Origin: Bugulina stolonifera
Taxonomy: Eukaryota > Bryozoa > Gymnolaemata > Cheilostomatida > Bugulidae
Reading direction: 5' to 3'
DNA length: 64,000 nucleotides
Assembly: GCA_935421135.1 (NCBI GenBank)
Contig: OW285187.1
Span: 5,394,001-5,458,000 of the forward strand
The notes beneath the pieces are model-generated. The model saw only the letters and a program-made list of their open reading frames with translations. It searched no databases and was not told the origin of the DNA. Position numbers and translations under genes: made by a program. Positions 20,706-43,188 of the stretch are shown one piece after another; the first letter of the stretch is position 1, and the number at the start of each line of letters is the position of its first letter.

Positions 20706-21425
20706 AGTAGTATAGTCAGTGCACTTCTAGACAGACACGCACTCATTGACCCCTGTTTTCAACCAATCACAAGCCGGTATTTCCGATTTCAACCAATCAC
20801 AGAAGAGCACAAAAATTTTGCACACGACCTTGCCAAGGTCACCCCAAAATCCCCCCTTCTGATTGGTCGAAAAAACATTTGCACACTTGACCCCGAACCC
20901 GGCCACGACCCCTTCCCTTCCTCCTTCCCACCCTCCTCCCCTCCCCCTCCCCCACCTCCCACTCCTCCCTCCTCCCCGCCACCGCCCTCGTCCCGTCCGC
21001 GCCACCGCCGTCGCCGCCGCCGCCACCGCCGCCCTCACCACCGCCGCCGCCGCCACCACCACCGCCCTCACCACCGTCGCCGCCACCGCCGCCACCGCCA
21101 CCACCGCCACCACCACCACCGCCGCCACCACCACCACCGCCACCGCCGCCGCCGCCGCCACCACCACCACCACCGCCGCCGCCGCCGCCGCCGCCATCAC
21201 CGTCATCACCGCCACCCCTCCTCCACCGCCGCCCACCCTCCCCACCCCGCAACCCCCACTCACCCGAACGACCAATCGTTTGAGGCGGTCAAGCCGCGTC
21301 CGCCCACGTTGCGTGCGGCGCCGACCGTACACGTGGAGGCGACGCCGGTGCCCCGTATCCACCGGGCCAAGCGACTAGGCAGCGGCCCGCCGCCCATTCC
21401 GAGTTCCACTGGGGTGGGACTATAA
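20706..21425 (+). repeat. Left TIR of element 1 (720 bp)
   Basis: Inverted copy of 30807-31529, differing by one 3-bp triplet plus scattered bases. The outer part has inverted and direct CCAAT boxes (about 20765, 20795, 20860, 21270). The middle is a long (CCN)n pyrimidine-rich tract, and the inner part is GC-rich. The long open frames across it (poly-Gly, His/Arg, Pro/Thr/Ala) arise from the triplet tract and are not convincing genes. Confidence 0.95.
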
Positions 21426-21450
21426 TGTAATATATTAAATTGTTTAGCCT

Positions 21451-21690
21451 CCCTATAAAAATATATAGTAGTAGGGTGTGAGTTATTTTTTAGCTTGATA
21501 GCATTTTATACAATAAACACTTCACAATTGCTGCCAATTACTCCATTTAACACTAACCTTATGTTCTACTTGTTGACATCTCTGATCAGGCACTGACTAG
21601 TAGGTAGCTGTCTCTGTTTACTCTCACTCTGTTGACTAGAGGCTGATTGTTCATACTGCTAGAGTGAGAAACTTATACCTTAAATAGTAG
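21451..21690 (-). promoter_or_regulatory. Vestigial polymerase promoter, leader exon and intron in element 1
   Basis: Closely matches the polymerase leader of element 2 (40613-40860). A minus-strand TATA-like CTATTTAAGG (21678-21687) is followed by a leader containing ATGTCAACAAGT, a donor AAG/GTTAGT at 21558/21557 and an acceptor TTTTTATAG at about 21453. Here the acceptor runs into about 26 bp and then the TIR, so nothing is left to express. The leader frame also meets a stop before the donor. Confidence 0.75.
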
Positions 21691-21722
21691 TATTCAGTGG
21701 GCGGAGTCTAACCATTTCCCCA

Positions 21723-22420
21723 CCCCGATGTGAATCCGAAGCCTCCCGATGTGAATCCGAAGCCTCCCGATGCACCCCGATGTGAATCCGAAGCCTCCCG
21801 ATGCACCCCGATGTGAATCCGAAGCCTCCCGATGCACCCCGATGTGAATCCGAAGCCTCCCGATGCACCCCGATGTGAATCCGAAGCCTCCCGATGCATC
21901 CCGATGTGATTCCGAAGCTTCCCGATGCATCCCGATGTGATTCCGAAGCTTCCCGATGCATCCCGATGTGAACCCGAAGCTTCCCGATGCATCCCGATGT
22001 GATTCCGAAGCTTCCCGATGCATCCCGATGCATCCCGATGTGATTCCGAAGCTTCCCGATGCATCCCGATGTGTCAATTCACATCGGGATGCATCGGGAT
22101 GCATCGGGAAGCTTCGGAATCACATCGGGATGCATCGGGAAGCTTCGGAATCACATCGGGATGCATCGGGAAGCTTCGGAATCACATCGGGATGCATCGG
22201 GAAGCTTCGGATTCACATCGGGATGCATCGGGAAGCTTCGGAATCACATCGGGATGCATCGGGAAGCTTCGGAATCACATCGGGATGCATCGGGAAGCTT
22301 CGGATTCACATCGGGATGCATCGGGAAGCTTCGGAATCACATCGGGATGCATCGGAAGGCTTCGGATTCACATCGGGATGCATCGGGAGGCTTCGGATTC
22401 ACATCGGGTCACATTGGGAT
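21723..22420. repeat. Large palindromic satellite of element 1 (31-bp units)
   Basis: Two opposed arms of about 350 bp, each about 11 copies of a 31-bp unit containing GCATCGGGAAGCTTCGGA and ATCACATCGGG, meet at about 22076 around the 6-nt spacer TCAATT. Every unit contains the self-complementary AAGCTT and ATGCAT. The outer left units carry CCTCCC/CACCCC variants. TATA promoters point away on both sides. ORFs across it with a 31-residue period are artefacts (three units are 93 bp). Confidence 0.95.
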
Positions 22421-22458
22421 TGGATAAAAAAAGGGAGGAGTCAAGAAATGAGCAGTTG

Positions 22459-22465
22459 TATAAAG
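22459..22465 (+). promoter_or_regulatory. TATA box of the small plus-strand gene, element 1
   Basis: TATAAAG about 89 bp upstream of the ATG at 22548, conserved at the same place in element 2 (41750). Confidence 0.65.
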
Positions 22466-22547
22466 GGAGAGTGGGATCACAGTCTCAGCATTCAAAGTTC
22501 ACCACATCACTACTGTACAGCTACACTACTACAATAGTACATTATCA

Positions 22548-22808
22548 ATGGATACTGACAACATAGTACAAAACCAAGAAGAGTTATTTGCGGGCTTAAC
22601 GGACTCACAAATGGATGGAATTATTGAGGAAGAAGAGTGCAGTCAGAAGAGGAAAGAAGAGGTGGATGCGTTAAAAGAGGCACGGAAGAAGGGGAAAATA
22701 ATAGGAGTGGGGAGTCCTGCCCGAAAGGATCTTTCTAACATGGTGGACTCTCCGTCCTCCCCGGAGCGGGCCTCGGATAGGGGCGAGACCACAACAACCC
22801 ATGGATGA
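22548..22808 (+). pseudogene. Small acidic protein gene, 3'-truncated copy in element 1
   Basis: 86 aa starting MDTDNIVQNQEELF, nearly identical to the first 84 residues of the 111-aa gene in element 2. The reading frame then leaves the shared sequence and stops within two codons. No family is recognised. The shared part is acidic, then Lys/Arg-rich (residues 30-50), then Ser/Pro-rich. It runs opposite to the capsid block and sits right beside the palindromic satellite, so a regulatory or DNA-associated role is possible but unproven. Its 3' end lies inside a 124-bp tandem duplication. Confidence 0.55.
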
Positions 22809-22989
22809 GTATTATTCCAAGATAGAAAAGATGCAGCTTTCTTCAGTAGTATTGTTTTATTACGAGGTGGACTCTCCATCCTCCCCGGAGCGGGCCTCGG
22901 ATAGGGGCGAGACCACAACAACCCATGGATGAGTATTATTCCAAGATAGAAAAGATGCAGCTTTCTTCAGTAGTATTGTTTTATTACGA
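22742..22989. repeat. 124-bp tandem duplication
   Basis: 22742-22865 is repeated with one or two differences at 22866-22989. It begins GGTGGACTCTCC and ends TTTTATTACGA. It includes the last codons and the stop of the truncated small gene. Confidence 0.92.
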
Positions 22990-23152
22990 AGATAAATAGA
23001 GAAAAAATAAAAGAATCAAGCAGAAATCTAAAAAGCAAAGAAAAAAAAAAAGAATGCAGGTAAGATAAAAACTATTGGTCTCTTTTTTTTTTTTTTTTTT
23101 TTTAGTTATAGTAGTATAAAAACGAATTATAAGTAAGGTGAAGTATTTCTCT
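22990..23152. other. Non-coding gap with poly-T tract
   Basis: AT-rich, with a run of about 21 T near 23083-23103. It probably holds the 3' end of the convergent small gene and of the protease gene. Confidence 0.5.
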
Positions 23153-23680
23153 CTAGTCAAAGTGAAAAGGTGAAAAAAGCATAATATTGTTTACATGCGT
23201 TGTGAGTGGGAAAGTATTATTTCTTTTATTATAGTATAAACGTTGTAATAGAGCTCTTATAGAATGATCTCGAACTCTTCCTTCTACTCTGCTTAGCCGT
23301 GTAATTATTCCCTCCATACTCCACCCTCGAGCTCGAAGGAGACAGAACAAGATGCAGTAGTCTCCACACACGTTAGTACTCTCTTCTTGTAGACACTCTC
23401 CATTCCATACTATTGGTATTCCCCATTGTTGTAACATCTTACCCACATCAGGATAAATAGAAGGGGGGAGACCATAGGAGTCGAAATACTCTATTTCTTT
23501 TCCATTCGAAAAAACAGAGATCCAATGCTCGCCACTTTTCTCACTTGTTTGAGTGTTGAAAACAAAAGATCCAGATGGGGAGAAGGAGTCTAAGAAGTGA
23601 TCCCTTGGCATAACCCCTCTAAAGGAGGTTGATGAGAGTTTATCATCAGATAGAATATTCGAGATTGAGAATGTATCCAT
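23153..23680 (-). CDS. PRO: Adenain-like cysteine protease (maturation protease)
   Basis: 175 aa with the adenovirus/Polinton protease signature. His52 lies in GEHWISV, the acidic residue Asp67 in EYFDSYGLPP, the oxyanion-hole Gln98 seven residues before the nucleophile, and Cys105 in NVCGDYC. Enzymes of this family cleave capsid and core precursors during virion maturation. It lies six bases downstream of the major capsid gene on the same strand, as is common in Polintons. Length fits the family and no break is visible. Confidence 0.93.
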   Translation of the reverse strand: MDTFSISNILSDDKLSSTSFRGVMPRDHFLDSFSPSGSFVFNTQTSEKSGEHWISVFSNGKEIEYFDSYGLPPSIYPDVGKMLQQWGIPIVWNGECLQEESTNVCGDYCILFCLLRARGWSMEGIITRLSRVEGRVRDHSIRALLQRLYYNKRNNTFPLTTHVNNIMLFSPFHFD

Positions 23681-23686
23681 TTTTTT

Positions 23687-25033
23687 TTACATCATCCCGG
23701 CTACCATAGATACTTCGTGATTTGCATTCAAGTAGATAATGTCATCTTTTTCTTCGTATACAAACAGTCCAAGTGTATTTTGAGTTTGATTAGCAAATGC
23801 TAGATTAATAGATAGACTCCCATTTGATAACAAGTGAAAGTTGTCATCACACAAATCTCCTGAAATGTCAAAGGCGTAGAGAGCAGCGCAGGACTTGTAT
23901 TTGCTAGGGGAGATCTCATTCCCTGTGTCAGCATCGGATGTATTTGTGACAGTGAACAAATTCATGAATTCACGAGCAAACTTTCCACTTGCAAAATTTG
24001 GTTCATATCTTCGGGTCACCGGTGTTCCATCAATTAGTAATTCTAATGAACTTAGATTGTTATGTCCAAATTTGAAGGGATTTTGCTTATACGTTCCACT
24101 CTTTGCAGTATGGTTGACTAGTCCGACAAAGACTCTGTTTGGCTTCTGTCCCGCTTGATCAAAGTTTACTCTCACTGACTGGTGTCCAGCAGGGATGACA
24201 TGGAAATGAGTTTTTATTCGGTCAATTGGTAGTTTTATAGACTCTTGTTGCACAACCCAAACATCCATTTGTGCTTTTTGTAAGGCCGGATTGGCTTGTA
24301 CACGTCGAATCCACAATTCTGTCTTAGTTATAGAAATCTTCGCCCCTCCTGCAGGGTTGTCTGTTTCTGCTAAGAGGGCCATTTGTGGAATAGCACGTTG
24401 TAGAGTAAGGCGAGAGCGAACTCCTGGTGGAATAAGTCTTCCTTGAGAAAACATACTCAACCTAGGTCTCCCATAGAAGCTCATCTCTTTACTTGTGGCT
24501 ATAAGTTTCTTTCTTTTTTCAACCACTTCGGGAGGTATACCATCATAGTCTTCTCCAGTTCCTTCATCCTCCATCCACCCACTCCCAACTTTCATATATG
24601 TGCTCTTAGCATCTTTACCATAGTTTAGGAGATTCTCGACATAAGCTCTATGTCCATAGTTTGGTTCATACTCAACATCTTGCCCGGCCAGTTGAACAGT
24701 GGCAGAAGAAAAGAGACTGTGCATAAAATTGTCCCCTGGAACAACCTTTAGTTGTTCTTCCGCAGGTAGTACGCTTCCATCAGCCTTGCTCACCTTTACT
24801 GTGGTGTGTAAGTAAGACCTTGATAGATCTGTGTAGAGTTCGTCTGCGGGCGGGATGTTAAATTCAATAGTGCCATCAGGGGAGTCCGTAACAGGAGCCA
24901 AAGGTACCCACTCACCTCTGAGCACGCTAGTATGAGTTGGCGGAGTGGCAAATAAGTCAAAACTGGAGTCAACCGTGTCTGGAGAGTCTTCAGAAACCTT
25001 GGAGAGAGAGATGGCTCGATGTGTGACGGACAT
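23687..25033 (-). CDS. MCP: Polinton major capsid protein (double jelly-roll)
   Basis: 448 aa. The N-terminal region (SSFDLFATPPTHTSV, then EFNIPPADELYTDLS about residues 57-71) is the conserved start of the Polinton/adintovirus major capsid family, often annotated in animal genomes as F54H12.2-like. Family members form double jelly-roll trimers that tile an icosahedral shell. The frame is intact with no introns. A TATA-like stretch (ATATATAA, about 25117-25128) precedes it. It is followed by the protease and preceded by the basic core-like protein, matching a normal Polinton morphogenesis block. Confidence 0.92.
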   Translation of the reverse strand: MSVTHRAISLSKVSEDSPDTVDSSFDLFATPPTHTSVLRGEWVPLAPVTDSPDGTIEFNIPPADELYTDLSRSYLHTTVKVSKADGSVLPAEEQLKVVPGDNFMHSLFSSATVQLAGQDVEYEPNYGHRAYVENLLNYGKDAKSTYMKVGSGWMEDEGTGEDYDGIPPEVVEKRKKLIATSKEMSFYGRPRLSMFSQGRLIPPGVRSRLTLQRAIPQMALLAETDNPAGGAKISITKTELWIRRVQANPALQKAQMDVWVVQQESIKLPIDRIKTHFHVIPAGHQSVRVNFDQAGQKPNRVFVGLVNHTAKSGTYKQNPFKFGHNNLSSLELLIDGTPVTRRYEPNFASGKFAREFMNLFTVTNTSDADTGNEISPSKYKSCAALYAFDISGDLCDDNFHLLSNGSLSINLAFANQTQNTLGLFVYEEKDDIIYLNANHEVSMVAGMM

Positions 25034-25116
25034 GTTCGATAGTGTGAGAGTTGTTCCATCTAGTACTTGCTCCTACAGTCGCTTGTCTAAGAGTGGGGAG
25101 TGGTGAGTCTAGGTGT

Positions 25117-25128
25117 GGATTATATATT
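25117..25128 (-). promoter_or_regulatory. TATA-like box upstream of the capsid gene
   Basis: On the minus strand AAATATATAATCC lies about 85-95 bp before the major capsid ATG. It suggests the capsid-protease pair has its own promoter. Confidence 0.45.
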
Positions 25129-25138
25129 TATCTTTCAT

Positions 25139-25549
25139 TTAGTCAAAAACTGTTTTTCTTCCTTTACGCTTTTTCTTTGTAGACTTTTGACTAACTCGTG
25201 CACGTTTGGCAGGTGGTTCACGTAATTCATCTTCTACATCACCTAGAAGATCCCCACCAGCTTCACGAAAACGTTTTGCTGCAGAGGATTTGAAGTTCTC
25301 TCCCTTGATTACATCTCCCAGAACCGAAGCTCCAGTAGTCAATAGCTTTTTCCCAATAGTTTTGGCACCATTCTTTAGCATGGGAAGGACCCCTCGGGCC
25401 AGTCCAGAAAAGAGTGAGCCGATCCCATTACCCGTCATAATAGGTTTTCCCCTGTACACACTCATTCCCTCTCCCACCTGGTTTGCATAATAGTCTTCAT
25501 ACATCTCACCTGACTCATCAGGAAAATATGGAACTATGCGAGGGGCCAT
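25139..25549 (-). CDS. Small basic virion/core-like protein of Polintons
   Basis: 136 aa if started at MAPRIV, which leaves one base between its ATG and the minor-capsid stop; an upstream ATG adds five residues. The layout is typical of a small conserved Polinton protein: an acidic/aromatic N-terminus, then YRGKPIMTGNGIGSLFSGL (Gly-rich, hydrophobic), a KNGAKTIGKKLLTTGASVLGD segment, a GENFKSSAAKRFREAGGDLL motif and a very basic tail (KSTKKKRKGRK). Related proteins have been compared with adenovirus core/pX-like proteins; that link is tentative. It may bind DNA or the inner capsid. Confidence 0.7.
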   Translation of the reverse strand: MAPRIVPYFPDESGEMYEDYYANQVGEGMSVYRGKPIMTGNGIGSLFSGLARGVLPMLKNGAKTIGKKLLTTGASVLGDVIKGENFKSSAAKRFREAGGDLLGDVEDELREPPAKRARVSQKSTKKKRKGRKTVFD

Positions 25550-25550
25550 G

Positions 25551-26297
25551 TTATTTCTCTCCACGCGGTCTGAAACGAACCGTCAGCACAACCTTTCCAC
25601 TGCGAAATGAGACCCTTTCTCCATCATCACGTCTTATATCTACCTCGATGAGGTCTGTGCTTGTATTAGACACTGGAGAGTATTGAACATTCGAAAACTC
25701 AAAGAAAACGGTGCTATTTCTTTCACTCTCTGTTATAGGAACTGTGCGAAGTAGGGGGACTAGACTATCTCCAACATGTCTTGGTGAGACTACGGAGGAG
25801 TAGACATAGAGGGATGTGAAACCAGCATTGATGTCTGGAGGGTTTTGACTCCTGTTGATTTCCGCAGCATATTCTACATCAGGTTCGAATCCCAACACCC
25901 ACGCAACATCACGTGACATCATGACAGAGTGTTCCTGTTCTCTCAACATGAGGAAGGTTTCATTCCGTAGACTATCATAGTAAAAGCTCACTACTTTTTC
26001 TAAGTCGTAGTTTATTAGTATTCTATTGATCTCACTCAAAAGTTCACCCATGGAAGCATACCTTCCACTCCTGATTTCACATTTTCGTTTGACTCCATCT
26101 TTTGTATTCGTAACCACTACATAGCCATCTTCCACATTTCTCCAGGATGCAGGGTACTGAATGTCAAGTAACCCAACCTCCCACTGTGATGAGTGAAGCT
26201 TCAATGTCTTGGCTAGCTTCGTAATGAAGTGAGCATTGGTGTTTGTGTCACTCCCACCGATGCGTACATTTGAGGTAAGTGTGACATTGAAGGCCAT
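25551..26297 (-). CDS. mCP: Polinton minor capsid (penton-like) protein
   Basis: 248 aa. It begins MAFNVTLTSNVRIGGSDTNTNAHFITKL and contains WEVGLLDIQYPASW and VAWVLGF, the pattern of the Polinton minor capsid protein, a single jelly-roll thought to form the fivefold vertices. Intact and intronless. A minus-strand TATA box (GTATAAATT, 26332-26340) precedes it by about 40 bp. Its position between integrase and the core-like/major capsid genes fits the family's usual gene cluster. Confidence 0.88.
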   Translation of the reverse strand: MAFNVTLTSNVRIGGSDTNTNAHFITKLAKTLKLHSSQWEVGLLDIQYPASWRNVEDGYVVVTNTKDGVKRKCEIRSGRYASMGELLSEINRILINYDLEKVVSFYYDSLRNETFLMLREQEHSVMMSRDVAWVLGFEPDVEYAAEINRSQNPPDINAGFTSLYVYSSVVSPRHVGDSLVPLLRTVPITESERNSTVFFEFSNVQYSPVSNTSTDLIEVDIRRDDGERVSFRSGKVVLTVRFRPRGEK

Positions 26298-26331
26298 CTT
26301 TGAGAGTGAGCAAAACTGAACTTACATATCG

Positions 26332-26340
26332 AATTTATAC
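26332..26340 (-). promoter_or_regulatory. TATA box upstream of the minor capsid gene
   Basis: GTATAAATT about 35-43 bp before the ATG on the minus strand. Confidence 0.5.
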
Positions 26341-26351
26341 TACCTTTGGTC

Positions 26352-27422
26352 TTACACAAACTGACTAGAATCTATCCAACTATTAAATGAAGAGGGATAA
26401 CCACTCCATTTCACGAAACTCTCTTCTTTTCCTCTCCTTCTCCGTTTACGTATGACTTTCTCAACTCTAAAGATTTCAGGTAGGTTAACATGTTGCAATT
26501 CTTGTGCATAGAATGTTCCATCTACTCCTTCTTTGTTTAGGTCTTCCAGTGTATAGACAGGAGGTGAGGTATGTGCCTTGACTGCTTTTATGGTGAATAT
26601 CTCGGTTGACCAGTTTGGTGTGAACCCTCGCTCAAAGCTACTACGAGCCATCGAAATCCGAACATGATCACCTGGTGAGTATTTTACTCTTGTTTTCTTT
26701 AACCATCGTTTAGGTGAGAACTCATTTAACCGAACCCAAACCTCTTCTTGATTATCGTAATCAACCTCAATAGGTTTCATTCCAATTGACCTATTAAAAC
26801 TGTTGTTATATCCTTGGACTAGGTCTTCTACATCTTCTAAGTAGCGTCCATCCCCTCTATAAGTGAGTAGACGATGAATTTTCCCTCTCAATGTTCTATT
26901 AAAGCGTTCAACAAGAGCAGCCTTGATGATCTCATTCTCAGAGGTGAAATGGCTAACTCCATACTTCTTTAGCACTTCACTCACCCTTCTGTTTAGGAAC
27001 TCCTTACCTTTATCAGTTTGTATTTGTCTAAAGCTTTCATTTTCGAATAGAGAGATGAGTGCATTGGACACTTCCAGACCAGACTTGGAATGAAGAGGAA
27101 AGACCCATGCTTTCCGTGAGAAGGCATCTATGCAGGTGAGCAAAAATGTTACTCCATCATTTGAGTCCTTGTGCGCACGCACATCCACGAGATCTGCCTG
27201 GAGTTGTTCACCAATCCCACTCACAAACGTTTTTCTCCTTGTAAACTTCATTCTAATCGGGCGATGAAGAGTGTATGCGTCTTGACTTCTCAACCACTTC
27301 TCAACATCATTCTCATTAATACCAGGAGGAGAAGCTAAAACTAACTTTCTCTTTCCTCCAAAAGATGGTGGTTGAGGAGGGGAGAAGTAAATATCACGTA
27401 GACCTTCATCTATATCATCCAT
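26352..27422 (-). CDS. INT: Polinton retrovirus-like integrase with chromodomain
   Basis: 356 aa. AYTLHRPIRMKF (about 49-60) is the conserved segment before the catalytic core. The DDE triad is visible as Asp77 (QADLVD), Asp137 (QTDKGKEF) and Glu172 (VERFNRTLRGK), with about 34 residues between the last two. A C-terminal chromodomain (about 318-356: FRVEKVI, then FVKWSGYPSSFNSWI) could bind modified histones and bias insertion. Family members join element ends to host DNA with 6-bp duplications, as seen on both complete elements here. Intact and intronless. It overlaps the start-distal end of the next gene by 13 bp. Confidence 0.94.
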   Translation of the reverse strand: MDDIDEGLRDIYFSPPQPPSFGGKRKLVLASPPGINENDVEKWLRSQDAYTLHRPIRMKFTRRKTFVSGIGEQLQADLVDVRAHKDSNDGVTFLLTCIDAFSRKAWVFPLHSKSGLEVSNALISLFENESFRQIQTDKGKEFLNRRVSEVLKKYGVSHFTSENEIIKAALVERFNRTLRGKIHRLLTYRGDGRYLEDVEDLVQGYNNSFNRSIGMKPIEVDYDNQEEVWVRLNEFSPKRWLKKTRVKYSPGDHVRISMARSSFERGFTPNWSTEIFTIKAVKAHTSPPVYTLEDLNKEGVDGTFYAQELQHVNLPEIFRVEKVIRKRRRRGKEESFVKWSGYPSSFNSWIDSSQFV

Positions 27423-27994
27423 CTTTCTGTTTTACTATTGCTTGCAAGAGGGGTTTTAGGAAGCTTTCGCCTAGACCTAGTTTTGATAGGACTTCTATTT
27501 TCACCCTTCCCACTCCAACGTGCGCCAGCTTCTGACCTCTCTGGTTTTGTTTCTCTCCTATATGGGTGTGGTAGTGGTGACCTTGAGCCACTTCGCCTCT
27601 TTTCATCATCTCTTTTTTTCTCTCGCCCTCGCTCTTGTGCTTCTTCTTCTCTTTGTCTCCATGTATGCATTTCATTAAACCTAGTGTTAATTCCCTCTAA
27701 TGTATTATACAACTCCTGCTGCGGATGGCGTGATCTCTCCAACTCTTTTAGGAACTTATTCATTTTATGAGCATGTTGCTCTAGCTGAGAGTAGATGTCT
27801 GTATCAGAGTTTTTGAGGTTAGATATTACATCTTTTCTGCTTTTTTCTGCCAGGAGTAGATCCCCATTTGTAGAGAGTGAGGGTAGATGCTCTCCTTCTT
27901 TTTTGTTGTTTCTACTATTCATTGATTCATATGTATGTTTATCCATAAGAAGATACTTTTTAGAAAACTTGAGACTCATTTCACCTTCGTCCAC
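27410..27994 (-). CDS. Charged coiled-coil-like protein of element 1, function unknown
   Basis: 194 aa, highly charged. The middle (about 85-150) is Glu/Arg/Lys-rich with EEAQERGREKKRDDEKRR, suggesting a helix or coiled coil. The C-terminal third is basic with Arg/Ser and Pro. It overlaps the integrase start by 13 bp and the preceding 132-aa gene by 14 bp, so it fits a tightly packed co-directional block. No family recognised. Confidence 0.6.
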   Translation of the reverse strand: MDEGEMSLKFSKKYLLMDKHTYESMNSRNNKKEGEHLPSLSTNGDLLLAEKSRKDVISNLKNSDTDIYSQLEQHAHKMNKFLKELERSRHPQQELYNTLEGINTRFNEMHTWRQREEEAQERGREKKRDDEKRRSGSRSPLPHPYRRETKPERSEAGARWSGKGENRSPIKTRSRRKLPKTPLASNSKTERWMI

Positions 27995-28379
27995 CGCCTA
28001 ATCCACCAAGCACACCTCCGAGTAAACTTGCCAATGGCTTCAAAAGAAGACCTAAAAATCCGCCACGTTGTAGGATTAACTTTTTCTGCCTCACACTAGT
28101 ACGAGAGTTGGTGAGATCCTCAATGGCCCTTCTATGTCGACGTAGAGAGTTCAACTGAGCGGTAGTTAGATGAACATTACCTAATAATACATTTCTAGCA
28201 CACTCAACAAGAGCGAGTATAAGGTCTTTGTTAGCCTCAGCAATGGTTGAATCTCTGATGGTTGCAGATGCTTTCGTCAGTGCATATATACTCAAGGCAT
28301 TCCTCCTCAACCTTGGAGAATACTCGGGTGAATTAATGTATCTCATGCTTGATGATGGATGCGCTCTCTTCGAGTCCAA
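27981..28379 (-). CDS. Conserved small Polinton protein with Gly-rich hydrophobic tail
   Basis: 132 aa. The central HLTTAQLNSLRRHRRAIEDL and QKKLILQRGGFLGLLL are typical of a small protein found beside the ATPase in many Polintons. The N-terminus is basic, and the C-terminus (about 107-132) is hydrophobic and Gly-rich (SLLGGVLGGLGGG), reminiscent of membrane-active virion peptides. Such a role is inference only. No break seen. Confidence 0.7.
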   Translation of the reverse strand: MDSKRAHPSSSMRYINSPEYSPRLRRNALSIYALTKASATIRDSTIAEANKDLILALVECARNVLLGNVHLTTAQLNSLRRHRRAIEDLTNSRTSVRQKKLILQRGGFLGLLLKPLASLLGGVLGGLGGGRR

Positions 28380-28411
28380 GACAGTTTATGGAGAGAGTAG
28401 AGATGTGAATG

Positions 28412-29071
28412 CTACTTATATTCCAGGGTATTCGGGATATATACAGTCATGGGAGAGTGCTCAGAAGCAAAATTACCGATCAGTCTAGCCCACTCCGGGG
28501 TTTCCTGGCGAAGATTCAAGAATAGAAAAGAGTGTGGCTTACGTGTAGCATCACTAAAAGCTTCTTGAACAGCTCTTGTACTCTGAGGAAAAGCCTGCTT
28601 TGCAAGATTGGTAACAGACATTCCGTCTCTGGGGTTCTTGAACAAGAAAAAGTACTGCGAGTTTATTGACACTGTTCTATTATCTTTCGGGAAAAGGTTC
28701 TGTAGTAAGAAAAAGACGCTTATGTTCAGGTGGTGACTGAACTTTGTAAAGATTGCATTAGTAGTCTCTTTCCCCCCGACTTCACCCATCAAGTCATCAA
28801 TGATGAGCCAGCGATTCTTCCCATCACGCTCTATATCCATTTCTACATCAATGAGTCCTGAATGAAACCTTACTTTATCCTTGTAATCCTCAAAGCGGCG
28901 TTGCCAAACTCCATAGCAGTAAATGATTTCAACAGGAGTGGGTGAAGCAATTTCATCAACTCTCCTAATAAGACTAAAAAGTAGTTCCGTTTTTCCACTC
29001 CCTGTTGGACCACAGACTAGAGCTGTGAAGGGACTCTGCAAGCGAAGATCGATTTCTTGGTGTGGACGCAT
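28412..29071 (-). CDS. ATP: FtsK/HerA-type genome-packaging ATPase
   Basis: 219 aa. Walker A GPTGSGKT lies at 21-28 after FTALVC, and Walker B WLIIDD is near 88-93. The length and N-terminal position of Walker A fit the Polinton/adenovirus IVa2-like packaging ATPases that pump DNA into preformed capsids. Intact, intronless and in the usual neighbourhood of small virion genes. Its first 98 bp overlap the tail of an upstream frame on the same strand. Confidence 0.92.
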   Translation of the reverse strand: MRPHQEIDLRLQSPFTALVCGPTGSGKTELLFSLIRRVDEIASPTPVEIIYCYGVWQRRFEDYKDKVRFHSGLIDVEMDIERDGKNRWLIIDDLMGEVGGKETTNAIFTKFSHHLNISVFFLLQNLFPKDNRTVSINSQYFFLFKNPRDGMSVTNLAKQAFPQSTRAVQEAFSDATRKPHSFLFLNLRQETPEWARLIGNFASEHSPMTVYIPNTLEYK

Positions 29072-29381: not shown

Positions 29382-29421
29382 CTTGCCCTTGTTTGAGAGA
29401 ACGATTGGAATCTATACACTT

Positions 29422-30750: not shown

Positions 30751-30803
30751 GTTTGCTATGACTAAGTCTTCTTTGTATTAATACTATCATCAGTCAAACT
30801 TAT

Positions 30804-35526: not shown

Positions 35527-36476
35527 AGTAGTATAGTCAGTGCAGATCTACACAGACACCCGGCCCTTTCCGCGTCGTATTAGCCCTAGATCCAAAAACT
35601 CCCCGGGCGGACGACCACCCCACCCGTCCTCTCGCCCCTCCTCTCCCCTAAACCTCACTCTATGTGCAAAGCCCTAGAACCTACTCCCCCCCATCGCGGG
35701 TGGGGTTTCAAAAACCTCATCGGCTGTTCCGCGGAACCCAGTCTAAAGAGCAAACCCCTCGCCCCGTCCCACGGCTCGGGCGAGGGGGCGCGCGCGTACG
35801 CGCGCGCCCCCCCGCCCCGCGAACCCCACCCGTCCTCCCTCCACCCGTCCCCGCCCCTCCCCACCCCTCCCCACCCCAAACCCCTCCGCCTCGCCCTCCG
35901 CCTCGCGGCGGTTCTCGTTCGCGAGTCCAGCCGTGGCCCCACGCCGCCCTCCCCCCGCCCATCCCCCGCCCCTCCCCCGCCCTCCCGCCCCAACGACCCG
36001 TCGCGACCCTCGCGGGCGGACCGTCGGCTGGAGTAGGGTGAAGCGAAGGAAAATACGGGTTAGAGTAATGATAGGCTACACCCGTGCGGAGTGCCCGTGC
36101 AGAGTTTACGACGCTGACTATACTACTATAAAAAACTTACCGAGTGGTGGTGGTGGTGCTTCCGGATGATTTCTTCGCCGGGGACTGTTGAGACTGAACT
36201 GGTCGGGGTGACACCGCACTCGCGCGCTCCTCCGTTCGAGCGCCCCCGGACCTTCGATGAAAGACTCGCGTCTTAACCCTCATTTTCCCCGGACCCTCCC
36301 CTAGGGAAATCGCCCGTCCCCGTGACGAGCGGCGAGAGAAAGTGAAGGCGGTGGCTCTTCCGCGCTTCAAATCGTAGACTTCGCGAGGAGGTTAGCCGAC
36401 GACATCATCGCTCGGAGGGGTAGAAATAGAAATAGATAAACGGGATAGATGGACGCTTGTCTTCTCATCGCCATCG

Positions 36477-36526
<50 letters not shown>

Positions 36527-36615
36527 CAAATAGACCCGCCTCTACGATGATGTCGTTGACTCGCCACCAATTTCTTTGACCACCGCGTCCACTTTCCCCC
36601 GGGTAGCAAACTCCG
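35527..36615 (+). repeat. Left TIR of element 2 (1089 bp)
   Basis: Inverted match to 42100-43188 with about one visible mismatch. The outer ~36 bp resemble the element 1/3 termini (same first 18 bp, then TCTA and ACAGACAC). The rest is unrelated GC-rich sequence containing a 28-nt alternating CG palindrome (35784-35811) and an ATC/GAT triplet run (about 36474-36522). The innermost part is a promoterless copy of the 3' portion of the small acidic gene. Confidence 0.95.
35784..35811. other. 28-nt perfect palindrome in left TIR, potential Z-DNA/cruciform
   Basis: A perfect inverted repeat made of a G-run, CGCGCG, the central TA at 35797/35798, CGCGCG and a C-run. The mirror copy is at 42904-42931. 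Confidence 0.85.
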
Positions 36616-36961
36616 ATAGGGAGAGAGCGCATCGTGCGCGTGCGATGTCACCCCCCACCTACGAATGAAGACAATAGAAGAAATGTGAACTGATAAGGGG
36701 TGAGTATGAGCGGAAGCTGCGCTAGTATCGTCTACCCCTTTGGTTTGGAGAGGTAAATGGTTTTTAATGTATTAGCTAGTGTTTTATTGCTCGGTTTTAA
36801 GGCTACAACCGGTAAACCCTCCGTTTTGAGGACGGAGACCCCTTACAATAGAGAGTGAATGTGAAAAAAATTATACGGGTATATGTACAAGGGTTATGAT
36901 GCACTGTTCGTTTACTCTCCAATTTATCGAATGAAGTAGTCTCATCTCCGAGAAATCAGTA
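36616..36961. other. Non-coding gap after the polymerase stop
   Basis: No gene seen. It should hold the 3' UTR and polyadenylation region of the minus-strand polymerase gene. Confidence 0.5.
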
Positions 36962-39900
36962 CTAGCATTCTATAGGACTCGTACTCACCCCGTCTTCTGC
37001 AACCTTCCGCTTACCATAGAAGTAGGTGAGTCCGGTCTTTAGCTGGGTGTAGCTATACGTTTGGTTTCCTCTTCTGATAAAACCCCGATTGTCCCCTCTC
37101 ACCGACTCCCCTGTCCTGAGCACGGAGAGGAACTTCTCTTTGGTTAGGGCGTTTCCTCTTTTGTTTAGTCCTTTGCTGCTATACTTGCTATCACCATCAG
37201 CGGACCAGCAAAAGTATGTTTTTGAGTTGAGCGCGATGACCCCCTCCCCCCGAAACTCCTCCTTAAACAGGCCGGGGGTTCGTGTTTCGTATCGTTGCAC
37301 CTTCTCACAACATTCCCTCATCTCCCACTCTTGGCCAAGCACCTTGGTCGTGATAAAGTCTTCCTTGTGCCTATCGCAGAAGGGTCTGGGAAACCATCTA
37401 CCATATTCTCTGTAGAACTCTTCTTTTTTATCTTTTCGGATGACCTCATCTATACTACGAGCACTCAGAGCCATGTAAGCGCTATCCGTGTCCATTTCTA
37501 CGTACTCAAAGTCCTCTCTGCTGACGAATCTGTGAAAATAAAACGGACGGGTTGTAGGGGGGGGGGGGGGGGGGGTTGGGGTTGACACCAAAGAATAAAT
37601 AGAGAAGGATTTGATAAAATCTTTGTATAGTCTAGTGCTACTTACCTATCCATAAAGTCGTAGTAGAATTCTAGCATTCTCAACTTGGCTCTCTGGAGGA
37701 TAACGAATCCTACGACAGATGGAACATCCATTCGAATCTAAAAGAAAGAAAGAGAGAGAGAGAGTTTACCCTACCACTCAGAAAAAGTTTCGTCAAATCA
37801 AGAATCAAAATAAAAAAAAAAAGATTGTCAACACTTGCCTTTTTCTTGTGAAGCTCTATCTCAAAGTAGTTTTCATCAACTTCGTTTAGACTAGAAAAGT
37901 GCCTACTCCTCACTTTGACAGCCGCCTCCTCTACTGTCTCCACATACTTGACAGTCTTATGTTTCTCTTTATTTGTTATGGTCTTTCCGTAGGCTGAATT
38001 CCCAACGAGCTTGCTGGTGCTGGCCAAGAGGGCCAGGTCGGGGTTCACATCCCCACCTCTTCTTGCGTCTGAGACCGAAGAACCAAAGTCTTTGTAGATG
38101 GCTCGTGGGATAAAGTGAACAAACTGATAGATCCTGGTAATTATCAAACCTTGATCTAGATACCATCTAGCCAGATCGGAGAGTAGTGTGATTCGCTCGC
38201 CAAAAAGACTCCCCACGAGCATTCGCTGAGGTCTCTTCAAGAATCCGTTCTGTTCGGCAAAAGCGCGCATGTGTTCGCTAAGGTGTTCTCTTCCCACGTT
38301 TATATTCTTGAAAATAGGTGCCATCTCAGAGAACTTCGCTTTTAGCTCTTCGGGTACGGAAATGTCACACTCCACTAAACCATAGTACTCTCCACTACGA
38401 ATGTTATTGATTATCTTATCGAGGTTGACGTAACCCCTCTCCGGATAGAGAGAAGAAAAGAAGATGGCGAGAAATGTCCTAACTTCTACATCCGAACGAA
38501 CTCGCGCTTCCCACTCACACTGCCGAGTGGTGATGAGCTTATAGCCTAGAGCCTTGATGTAATCTTCTTTCCTTGCAGTGTCCACCCGGAGCTCTTCATT
38601 CGTCATGTTTCTGACACCTTTTCCGTTCCCTCCTAGCTCGCACTCGTGCCCATGCCAGTAGCAACCGTGGAATTGGTACACCGTCCGACTCTGTTCGCTA
38701 TAACCATCCACTGGTAGGTTGTGACAGCCTATCCTCATTTCTCCTCCATTCTGTTGGTGAAGGATGACCTCTCCTCTCTTCCACGATTGGAACTCTAACC
38801 AACCATGCGCAACTTTGCTGAACTTTTTAATAGGTTCTAGAGCAAAGCCTCGGCTCTCTAGCCTCCGCCTGGGATAACCCGTAGGCATATTCCCCATCAT
38901 ACAGTATAGGTAGAGGGCGTTGGCATCAACTCCCAGAATGGACCTACAGGGTTTTGCGGATGTGCCATACATCTTCTCTCGAATAGAGGTCACTCCAACT
39001 TCATGATGTCTGTGAAAGATAATGCTTGGCCCTCCCACGAGGTTATCGCGAAGAGTATGGTACAGACTTTTGCTCTCCTCATCGAACAGACATATGGGTT
39101 GCGAGTTGCAAAGTTCGTCTCGGAGAGACATTAACCTATGCAGCGGAAGAGCGGCTTGTGGAGGAGAGTAGCCATAAGGTCGGGCCTCCACCTCCATAAA
39201 CAACCATCTGATAGCCAAGCCTGGAAGCGAGATTGCGGATTTCAACATGTCAATACCCTTTTGTCGATAGATAGAGCTCTGACGTGCAATGGCCTCGATG
39301 AATGGGGCCACATCGAGGTTGTTGTACCAGATGAGAAAATCCCTGAACGTTTCCATGTTCTCTCTTTCCCACACGACCTGACAGTGGTGATAATCTTGCT
39401 CGCTCAATTCTTGCTGAGTCAGCGAGTTGAAAAAACTCTCTCGGGGAGGGAGTCCATAATAATCCAACCTTCTCAGGGAATCTACCCAGTCGTAAGGAAA
39501 GAATCCCTTACTCTCTGACACGCCAAATGCCTTCAAGTATTTGGAGTAGTTGAAGCCCGGTGCGATAAAGTTGCATATGTCAAGGAACCTAAACATACAT
39601 CATGGCCAAACATCTAAAGAAACACAATTTGTCTGGGTAGGGACGGGCACCTCCTCTGGCCCAAAAGTCTACATCTAGTGCTATCACATGTCGGTTGTTA
39701 AGTATGTAGTCTGGGAGTTTGCTCACTACACCGCCCACCTTGCCAATCTCTAGGAGTTTATAGATGTAGAATGTCAGATTCGCAATGTGACGTAAAGCCC
39801 AAGCGGTATTCGGTCTCCTTTGTGCTGACCTCTCTCTCAAGTCGAGCTCCTGCACAGATTCGCAAAACTCTCTCATCTCATTCTCTGCTCTGATCAGTCT

Positions 39901-40568
39901 TGGCTTGGGGAAGAACGCGGCATTGTTGCTTGATGAGTGAAAGTAGCGCAACTCTCCACTGGTCTTATGCTCGAGGATGACTCCAGCGCTACAGTTAATC
40001 TTCACAGTACAAGGTACTCTCTTCCACATCGCTCTCAATTTAGTCCACACCTCTTCATCTCCTTCATCTTCACATTCCCCTCTCCACACTCGAACGTTGA
40101 GAATGTCTTCTACAGGACGAGAGTGTATTGTGGACCTGATCGAGCTCCAATAGCGGGCTAGTAGCACCCCCATCTCATCCCCCTCTTCAGCTGTTGGAGG
40201 TTTGGACCAGAAAACATCATCAAACTTCTCTGCATCCCCCTCATCTTTTTCCGCCTTGGCCTCGCTATGAAATCGTCTCATGTGATGACCTAGCTTTCTC
40301 CTCCCATCAAAACATCCACCACAAACCGGGCACTTGTGTGGGTGAGCCTGTGCATGCATTCTCTTCGTGTGCCTGTCTAGAGAAAACGCTGTTTTGAGAA
40401 CCAGACCGCATAGTTGACAAGTGTGCTCGGCCTGACGAGAGCTCTCCCCCCCTATAAAAATACAAAATAGTAGGGTGTAAGTTATTCTTTTACCTCATAC
40501 TACTATTAGCAATCCACAATTGTTACCAACTACCTCATTTAGCACTAACCTTTTTTACTTGTTGACAT
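36962..40568 (-). CDS. POLB: Polinton protein-primed family B DNA polymerase, exonuclease region deleted
   Basis: Predicted exons (minus): 40550-40568 (start ATGTCAACAAGT), 39589-40451, 37839-39596, 37646-37737 and 36962-37529. The N-terminus has two C2H2 zinc fingers (CQLCGLVLK, CPVCGGCFDG) and LCFFRCLAMM, a conserved Polinton polymerase segment. The next piece starts at FLDICNFIAPGFNYSKYL, which belongs at the end of the 3'-5' exonuclease domain, so the intervening part with the first acidic exonuclease motifs is missing, and the frame shifts at the junction (about 39589-39600). Downstream the polymerase core is complete: GVDANALYLY (motif A), LVGNSAYGKTI (motif B), VEMDTDSAY (motif C) and a normal C-terminus. 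One intron (37738-37838) uses a GC donor. As it stands it is probably non-functional or lacks proofreading. Confidence 0.88.
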
Positions 40569-40785
40569 CTCTGATCAGGTGCTGACTAGTAGGTAGGTGT
40601 CTCTGTTTAGTCTCCCTATAAAAAATATATAGTAGTAGGGTGTAAGTTAATTTTTTTTGTTTTTGGCTCAATAGCGTTATATACAATAGACACTTCACAA
40701 TTGCTGCCGATTACCCTATTTAGCACTAACCTTATGTTGTACTTGTTGACATCTCTGATCAGGTGCTGACTAGTAGGTAGCTGTC
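40447..40785 (-). repeat. Tandem duplication of the polymerase leader exon and intron
   Basis: Two similar ~160-bp copies, each with TCCCTATAAAAA on the plus strand (minus-strand acceptor TTTTTATAG), an intron containing ACACCCTACTA, and a leader with ATGTCAACAAGT before AAG/GTTAGT. The promoter-proximal copy has a stop before its donor (40731). The second copy (exon 40550-40615) reads through its donor in frame into the zinc-finger exon, so it supplies the usable start. Confidence 0.75.
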
Positions 40786-40851
40786 TCTGTTTACTCTCAC
40801 TCTGTTGACCAGAGGCTGATTGTTCATACTGCTAGAGTGAGAAACTCATAC

Positions 40852-40860
40852 CTTAAATAG
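40852..40860 (-). promoter_or_regulatory. TATA-like box of the polymerase gene
   Basis: CTATTTAAGG on the minus strand, between the palindromic satellite and the leader exon, identical in element 1 at 21678-21687. Confidence 0.6.
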
Positions 40861-40920
40861 TAGTATTCAGTGGGCGGAGTCTAACCATTTCCCCACCCTT
40901 GGCAATACCACCCCGATGTG

Positions 40921-41710
40921 AATCCGATGCATCCCGATGTGAATCCGAAGCTTCCCGATGCATCCCGATGTGATTCCGAAGCTTCCCGATGCATCCCGAT
41001 GTGAATCCGAAGCTTCCCGATGCATCCCGATGTGAATCCGAAGCTTCCCGATGCATCCCGATGTGATTCCGAAGCTTCCCGATGCATCCCGATGTGAATC
41101 CGAAGCTTCCCGATGCATCCCGATGTGATTCCGAAGCTTCCCGATGCATCCCGATGTGAATCCGAAGCTTCCCGATGCATCCCGATGTGATTCCGAAGCT
41201 TCCCGATGCATCCCGATGCATCCCGATGCACCCCGATGTGAATTGACACATCGGGACACATCGGGATGCATCGGGAAGCTTCGGAATCACATCGGGATGC
41301 ATCGGGAAGCTTCGGAATCACATCGGGATGCATCGGGAAGCTTCGGAATCACATCGGGATGCATCGGGAAGCTTCGGATTCACATCGGGATGCATCGGGA
41401 AGCTTCGGAATCACATCGGGATGCATCGGGATGCATCGGGAAGCTTCGGAATCACATCGGGATGCATCGGGAAGCTTCGGAATCACATCGGGATGCATCG
41501 GGAAGCTTCGGATTCACATCGGGATGCATCGGGAAGCTTCGGAATCACATCGGGATGCATCGGGATGCATCGGGAAGCTTCGGAATCACATCGGGATGCA
41601 TCGGGAAGCTTCGGATTCACATCGGGATGCATCGGGAAGCTTCGGAATCACATCGGGATGCATCGGGAAGCTTCGGATTCACATCGGGATGCATCGGGAC
41701 ACATTGGGAT
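40921..41710. repeat. Large palindromic satellite of element 2 (31-bp units)
   Basis: Same 31-bp unit as in element 1. Left arm about 320 bp, right arm about 460 bp, meeting at about 41243 around the 6-nt spacer AATTGA, which is the reverse complement of the element 1 spacer. Promoters point outward on both sides. Arm lengths differ from element 1, so units have been gained or lost. Confidence 0.95.
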
Positions 41711-41749
41711 TGGATATTAAAAAGGGAGGAGTCAAGAAATGAGCAGATG

Positions 41750-41756
41750 TATAAAG
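41750..41756 (+). promoter_or_regulatory. TATA box of the small acidic gene, element 2
   Basis: TATAAAG 82 bp before the ATG at 41838, in sequence shared with element 1. Confidence 0.65.
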
Positions 41757-41837
41757 GGAGAGTGGATCACAGTCTCAGCATTCAAAGTTCAGCACATCAC
41801 TACTGTACAGGAACACTACTACAATAGTACATTATCA

Positions 41838-42173
41838 ATGGATACTGACAACATAGTCCAGAACCAAGAAGAGTTATTTGCGGGCTTAACGGACTCACAA
41901 ATGGATGGAATTATTGAAGAAGAAGAGTGCAGTCAGAAGAGGAAAGAAGAGGTGGATGCGTTAAAAGAGGCACGGAAGAAGGGGAAAATAATAGGAGTGG
42001 GGAGTCTTGCCCGAAAGGATCTTTCTAACATGGCGGACTCTCCGTCCTCCCCGGAGCGGGCCTCGGATAGGGGCGAGACCACAACAACCAAGAAGAGGAC
42101 GGAGTTTGCTACCCGGGGGAAAGTGGACGCGGTGGTCAAAGAAATTGGTGGCGAGTCAACGACATCATCGTAG
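41838..42173 (+). CDS. Small acidic/basic protein gene of the control module, function unknown
   Basis: 111 aa starting at MDTDNIVQNQEELF. An upstream in-frame ATG at 41739 lies before the TATA box and is unlikely to be used. Composition: acidic N-terminal ~32 residues, a Lys/Arg-rich helix (EVDALKEARKKGK), a Ser/Pro segment (ADSPSSPERAS) and a final basic region. The last ~25 codons lie inside the right TIR, so only this copy, not its mirror in the left TIR, has a promoter. The gene may be spliced further downstream; I see no certain donor. No family recognised. Confidence 0.6.
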   Translation: MDTDNIVQNQEELFAGLTDSQMDGIIEEEECSQKRKEEVDALKEARKKGKIIGVGSLARKDLSNMADSPSSPERASDRGETTTTKKRTEFATRGKVDAVVKEIGGESTTSS

Positions 42174-42188
42174 AGGCGGGTCTATTTG

Positions 42189-42238
<50 letters not shown>

Positions 42239-43188
42239 CGATGGCGATGAGAAGACAAGCGTCCATCTATCCCGTTTATCTATTTCTATTTCTACCCCTC
42301 CGAGCGATGATGTCGTCGGCTAACCTCCTCGCGAAGTCTACGATTTGAAGCGCGGAAGAGCCACCGCCTTCACTTTCTCTCGCCGCTCGTCACGGGGACG
42401 GGCGATTTCCCTAGGGGAGGGTCCGGGGAAAATGAGGGTTAAGACGCGAGTCTTTCATCGAAGGTCCGGGGGCGCTCGAACGGAGGAGCGCGCGAGTGCG
42501 GTGTCACCCCGACCAGTTCAGTCTCAACAGTCCCCGGCGAAGAAATCATCCGGAAGCACCACCACCACCACTCGGTAAGTTTTTTATAGTAGTATAGTCA
42601 GCGTCGTAAACTCTGCACGGGCACTCCGCACGGGTGTAGCCTATCATTACTCTAACCCGTATTTTCCTTCGCTTCACCCTACTCCAGCCGACGGTCAGCC
42701 CGCGAGGGTCGCGACGGGTCGTTGGGGCGGGAGGGCGGGGGAGGGGCGGGGGATGGGCGGGGGGAGGGCGGCGTGGGGCCACGGCTGGACTCGCGAACGA
42801 GAACCGCCGCGAGGCGGAGGGCGAGGCGGAGGGGTTTGGGGTGGGGAGGGGTGGGGAGGGGCGGGGACGGGTGGAGGGAGGACGGGTGGGGTTCGCGGGG
42901 CGGGGGGGCGCGCGCGTACGCGCGCGCCCCCTCGCCCGAGCCGTGGGACGGGGCGAGGGGTTTGCTCTTTAGACTGGGTTCCGCGGAACAGCCGATGAGG
43001 TTTTTGAAACCCCACCCGCGATGGGGGGGAGTAGGTTCTAGGGCTTTGCACATAGAGTGAGGTTTAGGGGAGAGGAGGGGCGAGAGGACGGGTGGGGTGG
43101 TCGTCCGCCCGGGGAGTTTTTGGATCTAGGGCTAATACGACGCGGAAAGGGCCGGGTGTCTGTGTAGATCTGCACTGACTATACTACT
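42100..43188 (-). repeat. Right TIR of element 2 (1089 bp)
   Basis: Mirror of 35527-36615. It ends at the target duplication AATAGC (43189-43194), only 63 bp before the cellulase B start codon. A GAT-triplet run lies at about 42192-42240. The GC-rich open frames across it (Arg/Gly- and Pro-rich) mirror those in the left TIR and look non-coding. Confidence 0.95.

What the first reader, a model, noticed from the sequence alone, without database searches (positions are those of the whole stretch)
20706..43188. A divided Polinton: capsid/integrase genes on one unit, polymerase on another
Element 1 has integrase, ATPase, protease and capsid genes but no polymerase. Element 2 has the polymerase but none of the others. 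Each is bounded by its own long TIRs and a perfect 6-bp target duplication (AACATC; AATAGC), so both moved as finished units. They share the terminal 18 bp and a ~1.4-kb control module, and their gene contents are complementary. Autonomous Polintons normally carry both sets on one molecule. This looks like a two-component system in which each unit supplies what the other lacks, comparable in logic to a multipartite virus. The alternative is two independent deletion derivatives of a full element elsewhere.
Basis: partly seen in the sequence, partly recalled or inferred. Interest (0 to 1): 0.92.

Follow-up and report, generated by a model that had tools for sequence, protein, structure and literature searches.

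The report
A Polinton split across three units
In this eukaryotic genome a virus-like mobile element (a Polinton) has its genes divided over three kinds of separately inserted DNA unit, each present in an estimated hundred or more copies, so the unit with the capsid and integrase genes and the unit with the polymerase gene likely depend on each other, as the segments of a multipartite virus do.

Summary
In detail: E1 (20706-31529) and E2 (35527-43188) each have long TIRs, a perfect 6-bp target duplication and complementary genes. The genome (235 Mb, 27 contigs) supports the bold reading and extends it. Capsid and integrase 40-mers and the ATPase-p7 junction occur 198, 199 and 197 times; the polymerase 40-mer 273 times. 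None of 22 elements read (five only in part) carries both sets. All nine capsid-polymerase neighbours under 20 kb among the exact matches listed on C1-C4 are separated by termini. A third unit (estimated 127-145 copies) starts in this window at 58123: E1-type TIRs, an ankyrin gene, no Polinton core gene found. Copies compared within a class or subclass are 98.9-100% identical. The polymerase is under purifying selection (dN/dS 0.15-0.16). Integrase-less units share the capsid unit's target-site signature, and a gene-less palindromic derivative reached about 39 copies. A one-piece sibling in the same genome (3 pairs of ends, one read) has the polymerase between ATPase and p7, where class A lacks it. 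Correction: the window's E2 is itself defective (1070-bp frameshifting deletion in the polymerase, second gene lost); intact sister copies exist. Replication and packaging in trans are inferred, not shown.

The parts
20700..20705 (.). E1 target duplication AACATC, left
   Evidence: sequence
31530..31535 (.). E1 target duplication AACATC, right
   Evidence: sequence
20706..31529 (-). E1: class A unit (capsid + integrase), 10,824 bp
   Evidence: 198 hits of its MCP 40-mer in the genome
20706..21425 (+). E1 left TIR (A/C type)
   Evidence: 99.4% to right TIR
30807..31529 (-). E1 right TIR (A/C type)
21441..22799 (.). module shared with class B: 31-bp tandem repeats plus the start of a shared acidic ORF
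   Evidence: 89-90% to 40604-42089; ORF 96% to class B over 112 aa in 3 of the 4 other class A copies, 91% over 101 aa in the fourth
23153..23680 (-). adenain-like protease (PRO)
   Evidence: PF00770 12.8 bits, below cut-off; 36% to the U1 protein, itself below cut-off
23687..25033 (-). major capsid protein, predicted double jelly-roll
   Evidence: Foldseek to PBCV-1 Vp54 1.2e-17, also Sputnik and mavirus MCP
25139..25549 (-). p3, unknown
   Evidence: 44% to U1
25551..26297 (-). likely minor capsid protein (mCP, by position)
   Evidence: 35% to U1 ORF in the same order; no Pfam
26352..27422 (-). integrase (rve + chromodomain)
   Evidence: PF00665 2e-11, PF00385 1.2e-6; best PDB match 7z0h, an integrase, 1.8e-6
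27410..27979 (-). p6, coiled-coil-like, unknown
   Evidence: weak Pfam only
27981..28346 (-). p7, unknown
   Evidence: 45% to U1
28350..28405 (.). ATPase-p7 junction; the polymerase sits between these genes in the one-piece sibling
   Evidence: 197 hits; U1 order
28412..29071 (-). A32-type packaging ATPase
   Evidence: PF04665 1.3e-6
28974..29381 (-). p9, unknown
   Evidence: ORF, 99% in 4 of 4 other class A copies
29422..30750 (-). p10, unknown
   Evidence: ORF, 99-100% in 4 of 4 other class A copies, broken in L015 and cut by the fetch in L028
35521..35526 (.). E2 target duplication AATAGC, left
43189..43194 (.). E2 target duplication AATAGC, right
35527..43188 (-). E2: defective class B unit (polymerase), 7,662 bp
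   Evidence: nine sisters of 9.3-9.8 kb
35527..36615 (+). E2 left end; TIR proper is 543-544 bp in the five sisters measured
42100..43188 (-). E2 right end, an inverted copy of the left end that replaces the OB-protein side
36962..37591 (-). PolB 3' piece with the DTDS motif, set off by an intron-like gap
   Evidence: 50-54% to U1; translation; motif name recalled
37710..39596 (-). PolB middle piece
   Evidence: PF03175 2.7e-6
39592..40494 (-). PolB N-terminal piece (C2H2-like fingers); 1,070-bp deletion at 39593|39594
40604..42089 (.). shared module in E2
41739..42173 (+). acidic ORF (191-aa open stretch in L027), cut short in E2
58117..58122 (.). target duplication CACATG, left, of the third element
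58123..64000 (+). class C unit (cargo), 9,514 bp, runs past the window end to G000:C1:5461636
58123..58813 (+). class C left TIR, E1 type
   Evidence: 99.1-99.7% to the E1 TIRs
59909..61309 (-). class C gene X466, function unknown
   Evidence: 98.9-99.9% among 6 of 6 class C copies; no Pfam over cut-off

Best explanation
This is a Polinton-lineage family whose genes are divided over three kinds of separately inserted unit in the same genome (A: capsid, ATPase, integrase and a likely protease; B: a family B DNA polymerase plus a predicted single-strand-DNA-binding protein; C: cargo genes), and these units are likely replicated, inserted and packaged in trans by one another's proteins. Shown: each class is multicopy, the copies compared are near-identical, every element read at both ends has a matching target duplication, all end in the same 18 bp, the integrase 40-mer count matches the capsid count, and A/C-type and B-type ends share one target-site signature. 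Inferred: B's polymerase primes on the shared termini and copies all units, A's integrase inserts all, and A's capsid and ATPase package all. Also inferred: the split arose from a one-piece ancestor with the gene order of the sibling U1, by loss of the polymerase from between ATPase and p7.
For: Counts (40-56-mers, up to 3 mismatches; backwards controls 0): MCP 198, INT 199, ATPase-p7 junction 197, POL 273, X466 253 hits, at most two per element in the list, so about 127-145 elements. 0 of 22 elements carry both sets (L015, L020, L022, L028 and L026 were cut at 10 kb). Among the exact matches listed on C1-C4 (65 MCP, 96 POL), 9 of 9 MCP-POL neighbours under 20 kb have a terminus between the genes. 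TSDs match in 19 of 19 elements with both ends read. Identity: A 99.5-99.9%, B1 99.8-100%, B2 99.3-99.95%, C 98.9-100%. POL exon 1 is open in 7 of 9 class B copies outside the window; dN/dS 0.151-0.162 between B1 and B2, both polymerase-only as far as read. Target signature: Y-R at positions 3-4 of the TSD in 26 of 29 A/C-type and 28 of 32 B-type ends against 27.6% in host flank. Gene-less palindromic derivative in about 39 copies (two read), two others with A-type ends by coordinates. One-piece sibling U1.
Against: No expression, replication or virion data. Polymerase-less integrated relatives are in print and may replicate another way (PMC10120064, passages read), so A may not need B. A and B TIRs are alike only over about 33 bp. 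The stricter A-Y-R-T target form is met by 17 of 29 A/C-type and 12 of 32 B-type ends (p 0.13). C could be a hitch-hiker rather than a segment. U1, whose right end shares 11 bp and left end 8 bp with this family, could act as helper, though only 3 pairs of its ends exist. U1 (33-54% identical proteins) is a sibling, not the ancestor. Neighbour distances cover only exact matches listed on C1-C4; the genome-wide statement rests on the junction count. The closest metagenomic polymerases (50-55%) have unknown context.
Confidence: 0.8

Rival explanations
1. A alone is a polymerase-less Polinton-like virus that uses another polymerase (host or U1), and B, C and the palindromes are hitch-hikers that use A's integrase.
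For: Polymerase-less integrated relatives are reported (PMC10120064). Gene-less derivatives are indeed amplified here. A has its own near-complete morphogenesis set.
Against: B's polymerase stays under purifying selection, dN/dS 0.15-0.16 with 109-119 synonymous changes against the three B2 copies with the full frame, while on a unit that lacks integrase and capsid; B also keeps a predicted ssDNA-binding gene (dN/dS 0.17-0.20, 6-9 synonymous changes). The sibling U1 has the polymerase.
Confidence: 0.12
2. Both halves are independent deletion derivatives of a full-length element elsewhere in the genome, mobilised by it.
For: Deletion derivatives do occur: the window's E2 and the palindromes. 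U1 shares 11 bp (right) and 8 bp (left) of the termini.
Against: No full-length element of this family was found (197 junctions; 9 of 9 neighbours separate). U1 has only 3 pairs of ends and 33-54% protein identity. The genes of both halves are intact in many of the copies read, and the polymerase is selected.
Confidence: 0.06
3. Assembly artefact: a larger element collapsed or cut in two.
Against: 19 of 19 elements with both ends read have their own matching 6-bp TSD at different sites. Size classes are tight on chromosome-scale contigs.
Confidence: 0.01

Closest known systems
Polinton / Maverick (polintoviruses, adintoviruses)
   Same: Retroviral-type integrase with chromodomain, family B polymerase, double jelly-roll capsid by predicted fold, A32 ATPase, adenain-like protease (weak), long TIRs, 6-bp TSD; same order of the shared genes as the one-piece sibling U1
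   Different: Genes are split over separately inserted units with shared termini; no one-piece member of this family was found
Bidnaviridae (Bombyx mori bidensovirus)
   Same: Bipartite DNA virus with a Polinton-derived PolB and conserved segment ends; segments in separate capsids (PMC4061559, passages read)
   Different: ssDNA, parvovirus-type capsid, PolB and main capsid gene on the same segment; not known as a genome-integrated multicopy element (recalled)
Acheta domesticus segmented densovirus
   Same: Bipartite form of a virus kind that is otherwise one-piece (PMC10267136, abstract in a search listing)
   Different: Parvovirus; no integrase or polymerase unit (recalled)
Polydnaviruses
   Same: Units integrated in the host genome, with IkB-like ankyrin genes among them (PMC3757122, PMC3210807: abstracts in a listing)
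   Different: Domesticated by wasps, circular packaged segments, genes for particles not carried in the particle (recalled); here each unit read has its own TIRs and target duplication
Tripartite ICEs of Mesorhizobium
   Same: A mobile element kept as three separate chromosomal regions (PMC5882170, abstract in a listing; PMC6431247, passage)
   Different: Bacterial; the three regions recombine into one circle before transfer
Autonomous / non-autonomous transposon pairs
   Same: Mobilisation in trans through shared termini
   Different: Here dependence looks reciprocal: each of A and B lacks an essential function that the other carries

Membership tests
Polinton lineage | retroviral-type (rve) integrase | tested here: met
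   PF00665 44.5 bits over cut-off 32.6; found only on class A
Polinton lineage | protein-primed-type family B polymerase | tested here: met
   PF03175 27.1 bits over cut-off 25.8; 37% to U1 polymerase over 1,162 aa; protein priming itself not testable
Polinton lineage | double jelly-roll major capsid protein | tested here: met
   model pLDDT 69, pTM 0.74; Foldseek 1.2e-17 to PBCV-1 Vp54, also mavirus MCP
Polinton lineage | A32-type packaging ATPase | tested here: met
   PF04665 28.5 bits over cut-off 22.8
Polinton lineage | adenain-like protease | tested here: inconclusive
   PF00770 12.8 bits, below 21.3
Polinton lineage | minor (penton) capsid protein | tested here: inconclusive
   ORF in the U1 position, 35% identity; no Pfam
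Polinton lineage | long TIRs and 6-bp target duplication | tested here: met
   matching TSD in 19 of 19 elements with both ends read
autonomous one-piece Polinton | all core genes on one molecule | tested here: not met
   0 of 22 elements; 197 ATPase-p7 junctions
multipartite (segmented) virus | essential genes on different molecules with shared ends | tested here: met
   met for the integrated units, free molecules not seen
multipartite (segmented) virus | segments replicated and packaged by shared proteins | not testable with these tools
   indirect only: shared target signature, amplified gene-less derivative
Bidnaviridae | parvovirus-type single jelly-roll capsid with PolB | tested here: not met
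   capsid model is double jelly-roll
Polydnavirus | host-domesticated packaging genes outside the segments | tested here: not met
   capsid genes lie on mobile units with TIRs and TSDs

The most novel reading that the evidence does not exclude
The first multipartite polintovirus: a three-segment (A capsid/integrase, B polymerase/SSB, C ankyrin cargo) integrating double-stranded DNA virus of about 10 kb per segment, whose segments are replicated from one shared 18-bp origin, packaged in the same kind of capsid and inserted independently, complete with palindromic defective genomes.
Probability: 0.5. Interest if true: 0.97.

Novelty: new variant of a known kind. Interest (0 to 1): 0.92.

Why it matters
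Polintons are placed near the root of many eukaryotic DNA viruses, and whether they are transposons or viruses is debated. A stable division into interdependent units would show how a one-piece DNA element becomes multipartite, with the one-piece sibling, the divided form and defective derivatives side by side in one genome. It also makes a hard question testable: which proteins act in trans, and whether separately inserted units travel together in particles.

Tried and rejected
First-stage reading of E2 as a finished unit: rejected.

A suspected fourth class (B-type TIRs, no listed POL, 7.6-8.3 kb) turned out, in the one member read, to be a gene-less palindromic derivative.

A possible difference in target sites between A/C and B (8 of 11 against 4 of 12 with ACA/TGT in the first set, p 0.10) was not reproduced in a fresh set (9 of 20 against 8 of 20); the Y-R signature held in both sets. 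Dropped before the count: two of three A copies with identical flanks. Not in that count: the ends of eight elements read at neighbour pairs; by my reading all eight fit Y-R. The class C cargo was searched exon by exon, not joined; one of three exons matched ankyrin chains only weakly (0.0035).

Literature searches for a divided Polinton, judged from listed titles and starts of abstracts: 30 of 140 listed; 20 of 31; 2 of 2; 16 of 16; 12 of 13; 1 of 1; none seen. Only open-licence PMC papers are held.

Limits of the lists: pattern searches list 100 places, exact matches first (seen, where mismatched places come last), so copies with 1-3 mismatches are in the totals but not in the neighbour analysis.


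Full report
Observation. E1 (20706-31529) and E2 (35527-43188) are as described: long TIRs, perfect 6-bp target duplications (AACATC; AATAGC), the same 18-bp terminus, 30 of the first 33 bp alike, and a shared ~1.4-kb module at 89-90%. E1 carries integrase, ATPase, capsid and protease-like genes; E2 carries polymerase pieces only. The capsid assignment was too weak by sequence (Pfam 11.5 bits), but the predicted fold is a double jelly-roll (Foldseek 1.2e-17 to PBCV-1 Vp54; Sputnik and mavirus MCP also match).

The genome. The window lies at G000:C1:5394001-5458000 in a 235-Mb, 27-contig eukaryotic assembly. The 18-bp terminus occurs 678 + 693 times, the pattern read backwards never. In the first 100 listed places, paired termini give size clusters near 9.6 kb and 10.7 kb, with others from 2.8 to 15 kb. 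I read 20 of these elements, which with E1 and E2 makes 22; four further A loci and L026 were cut at 10 kb. They fall into three coding classes: A, capsid set with E1-type TIRs, 5; B, polymerase with E2-type TIRs, 10; C, a third kind with E1-type TIRs, 6, of which one (L009) starts in this window at 58123. One more (L018) is a rearranged B-type element without genes. None of the 22 has both the capsid set and the polymerase in what was read.

Counts. With up to 3 mismatches and backwards controls of 0: MCP 82 + 116 = 198, INT 84 + 115 = 199, POL 129 + 144 = 273 (broken copies such as E2 are included), class C ORF 130 + 123 = 253 hits. The class C 40-mer is usually present twice per element: 98 listed exact hits lie in 56 elements on C1-C4, so 253 hits stand for about 127-145 elements, an estimate. 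TIR 33-mers with up to 2 mismatches: A/C type 363 + 365, B type 345 + 346.

Is there a one-piece form? Among the exact matches listed, 65 MCP and 96 POL places lie on C1-C4; places with mismatches are counted in the totals but not listed. Nine MCP-POL neighbours lie within 20 kb, and in nine of nine a terminus lies between the genes. Genome-wide, the ATPase-p7 junction occurs 197 times, against 198 MCP. That matters because of a one-piece sibling in the same genome, U1 (C1:22072416-22089691, 17.3 kb; ends AGTAGTATGG and AGTAGTATAG; TSD GCAGTG on both sides). U1 has PRO, MCP, p3, mCP, INT, p7, polymerase and ATPase relatives in one element, with 33-54% identical proteins, and its polymerase lies between ATPase and p7. 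U1-type ends occur in 3 pairs, of which I read one. A second, more distant one-piece lineage (L031/L004/L032) is also present.

Recent and selected. A copies are 99.5-99.9% identical over up to 7.6 kb, B1 copies 99.8-100%, B2 copies 99.3-99.95%, C copies 98.9-100%. The two B subfamilies differ at 95.2-95.6% identity; between them POL exon 1 has dN/dS 0.15-0.16 (109-119 synonymous and 65-76 nonsynonymous changes for the three B2 copies with the full frame). Because the copies read of both subfamilies are polymerase-only, the polymerase was most likely kept working after it was on its own unit. Polymerase exon 1 is open in 7 of 9 class B copies outside the window, MCP in 4 of 5 A copies, INT in 5 of 5.

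Trans insertion. The integrase was found only on A, yet B is inserted with the same site choice: pyrimidine-purine at positions 3-4 of the TSD in 26 of 29 A/C-type and 28 of 32 B-type ends, against 27.6% in host flank; A/C against B p = 1.0 (two of three A copies with identical flanks were dropped first). The stricter A-Y-R-T form is met by 17 of 29 and 12 of 32 (p 0.13). An apparent difference in an earlier small set was not reproduced. A gene-less palindromic derivative reached about 39 copies (78 junction matches; two copies read, L018 and L045). By coordinates, two further copies have A-type instead of B-type TIRs. So units without any gene move, and A- and B-type ends appear to serve the same body.

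The window's E2. Against sister copies, E2 lost 1,070 bp of polymerase (a frameshift), and its right side, with the OB-protein gene, was replaced by an inverted copy of the left end. The lost stretch covers the conserved columns D479/E481, which I read as the exonuclease site from recall. E2 is a defective class B element. The argument for division therefore rests on the genome, not on the two window elements.

Mechanism. I commit to a divided Polinton: B copies all units from the shared termini, A inserts and packages them, and C rides as cargo or accessory segment. Shown: the division, the copy numbers, the shared ends, the shared site choice, selection on the polymerase. Inferred: replication and packaging in trans, and mutual need. 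The strongest rival is that A replicates without B; polymerase-less integrated relatives are in print (PMC10120064, passages read). Selection on B's polymerase weighs against B being a mere passenger but does not show that A needs it.

Known systems. Bidnaviruses are bipartite with a Polinton-derived PolB (PMC4061559, passages read) but have parvovirus-type capsids. Tripartite ICEs are a bacterial analogue (abstract). My searches showed no divided Polinton among the rows listed (open-licence PMC only).

Noticed in passing
G000:C1:17537468-17546033 and C3:2413203-2421575: By coordinates, two palindromic bodies that normally carry B-type TIRs here carry A-type TIRs: ends seem to have been exchanged between classes. 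Not read.
   Followed up: partly
G000:C1:14200014, 14298523, 14359530: Three class A copies with identical flanks and TSD, so host segmental duplication rather than three insertions; copy counts include such cases.
   Followed up: partly
G000:C1:14505550-14505589: Two termini head to head with only 4 bp between them: a 40-bp terminus palindrome 1.4 kb from a full element.
   Followed up: no
G000:C1:26262243-26279407: A 17.2-kb element with A/C-type TIRs, integrase and ATPase-p7 junction; no MCP or POL 40-mer among the exact matches listed there (mismatched ones are not listed). Probably a nested insertion; worth reading as a one-piece candidate.
   Followed up: no
L031, L004, L032 (C1:4277966-4293138): A second, distant one-piece Polinton lineage in the same genome (TIR 579 bp, 96%; 25-29% protein identity where matched).
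   Followed up: partly
L009 1084-1760 against L045 2088-6138: Class C and the palindromic derivative share non-coding tandem repeats at 75-85%, a further trace of exchange between classes.
   Followed up: no
G000:C4:17194250-17204351 and 17207359: A B-type element and the neighbouring A-type end 3 kb away have the same flanking hexamer ATCACA; chance or a linked event.
   Followed up: partly
window 55932-56522: ORF with a cornifin (SPRR) match, E 1.7e-13, likely a low-complexity repeat.
   Followed up: no
P0129: The class B OB protein is found 100% identical in another source (lgn) on a 1,086-bp contig, so another data set of the host may exist.
   Followed up: no
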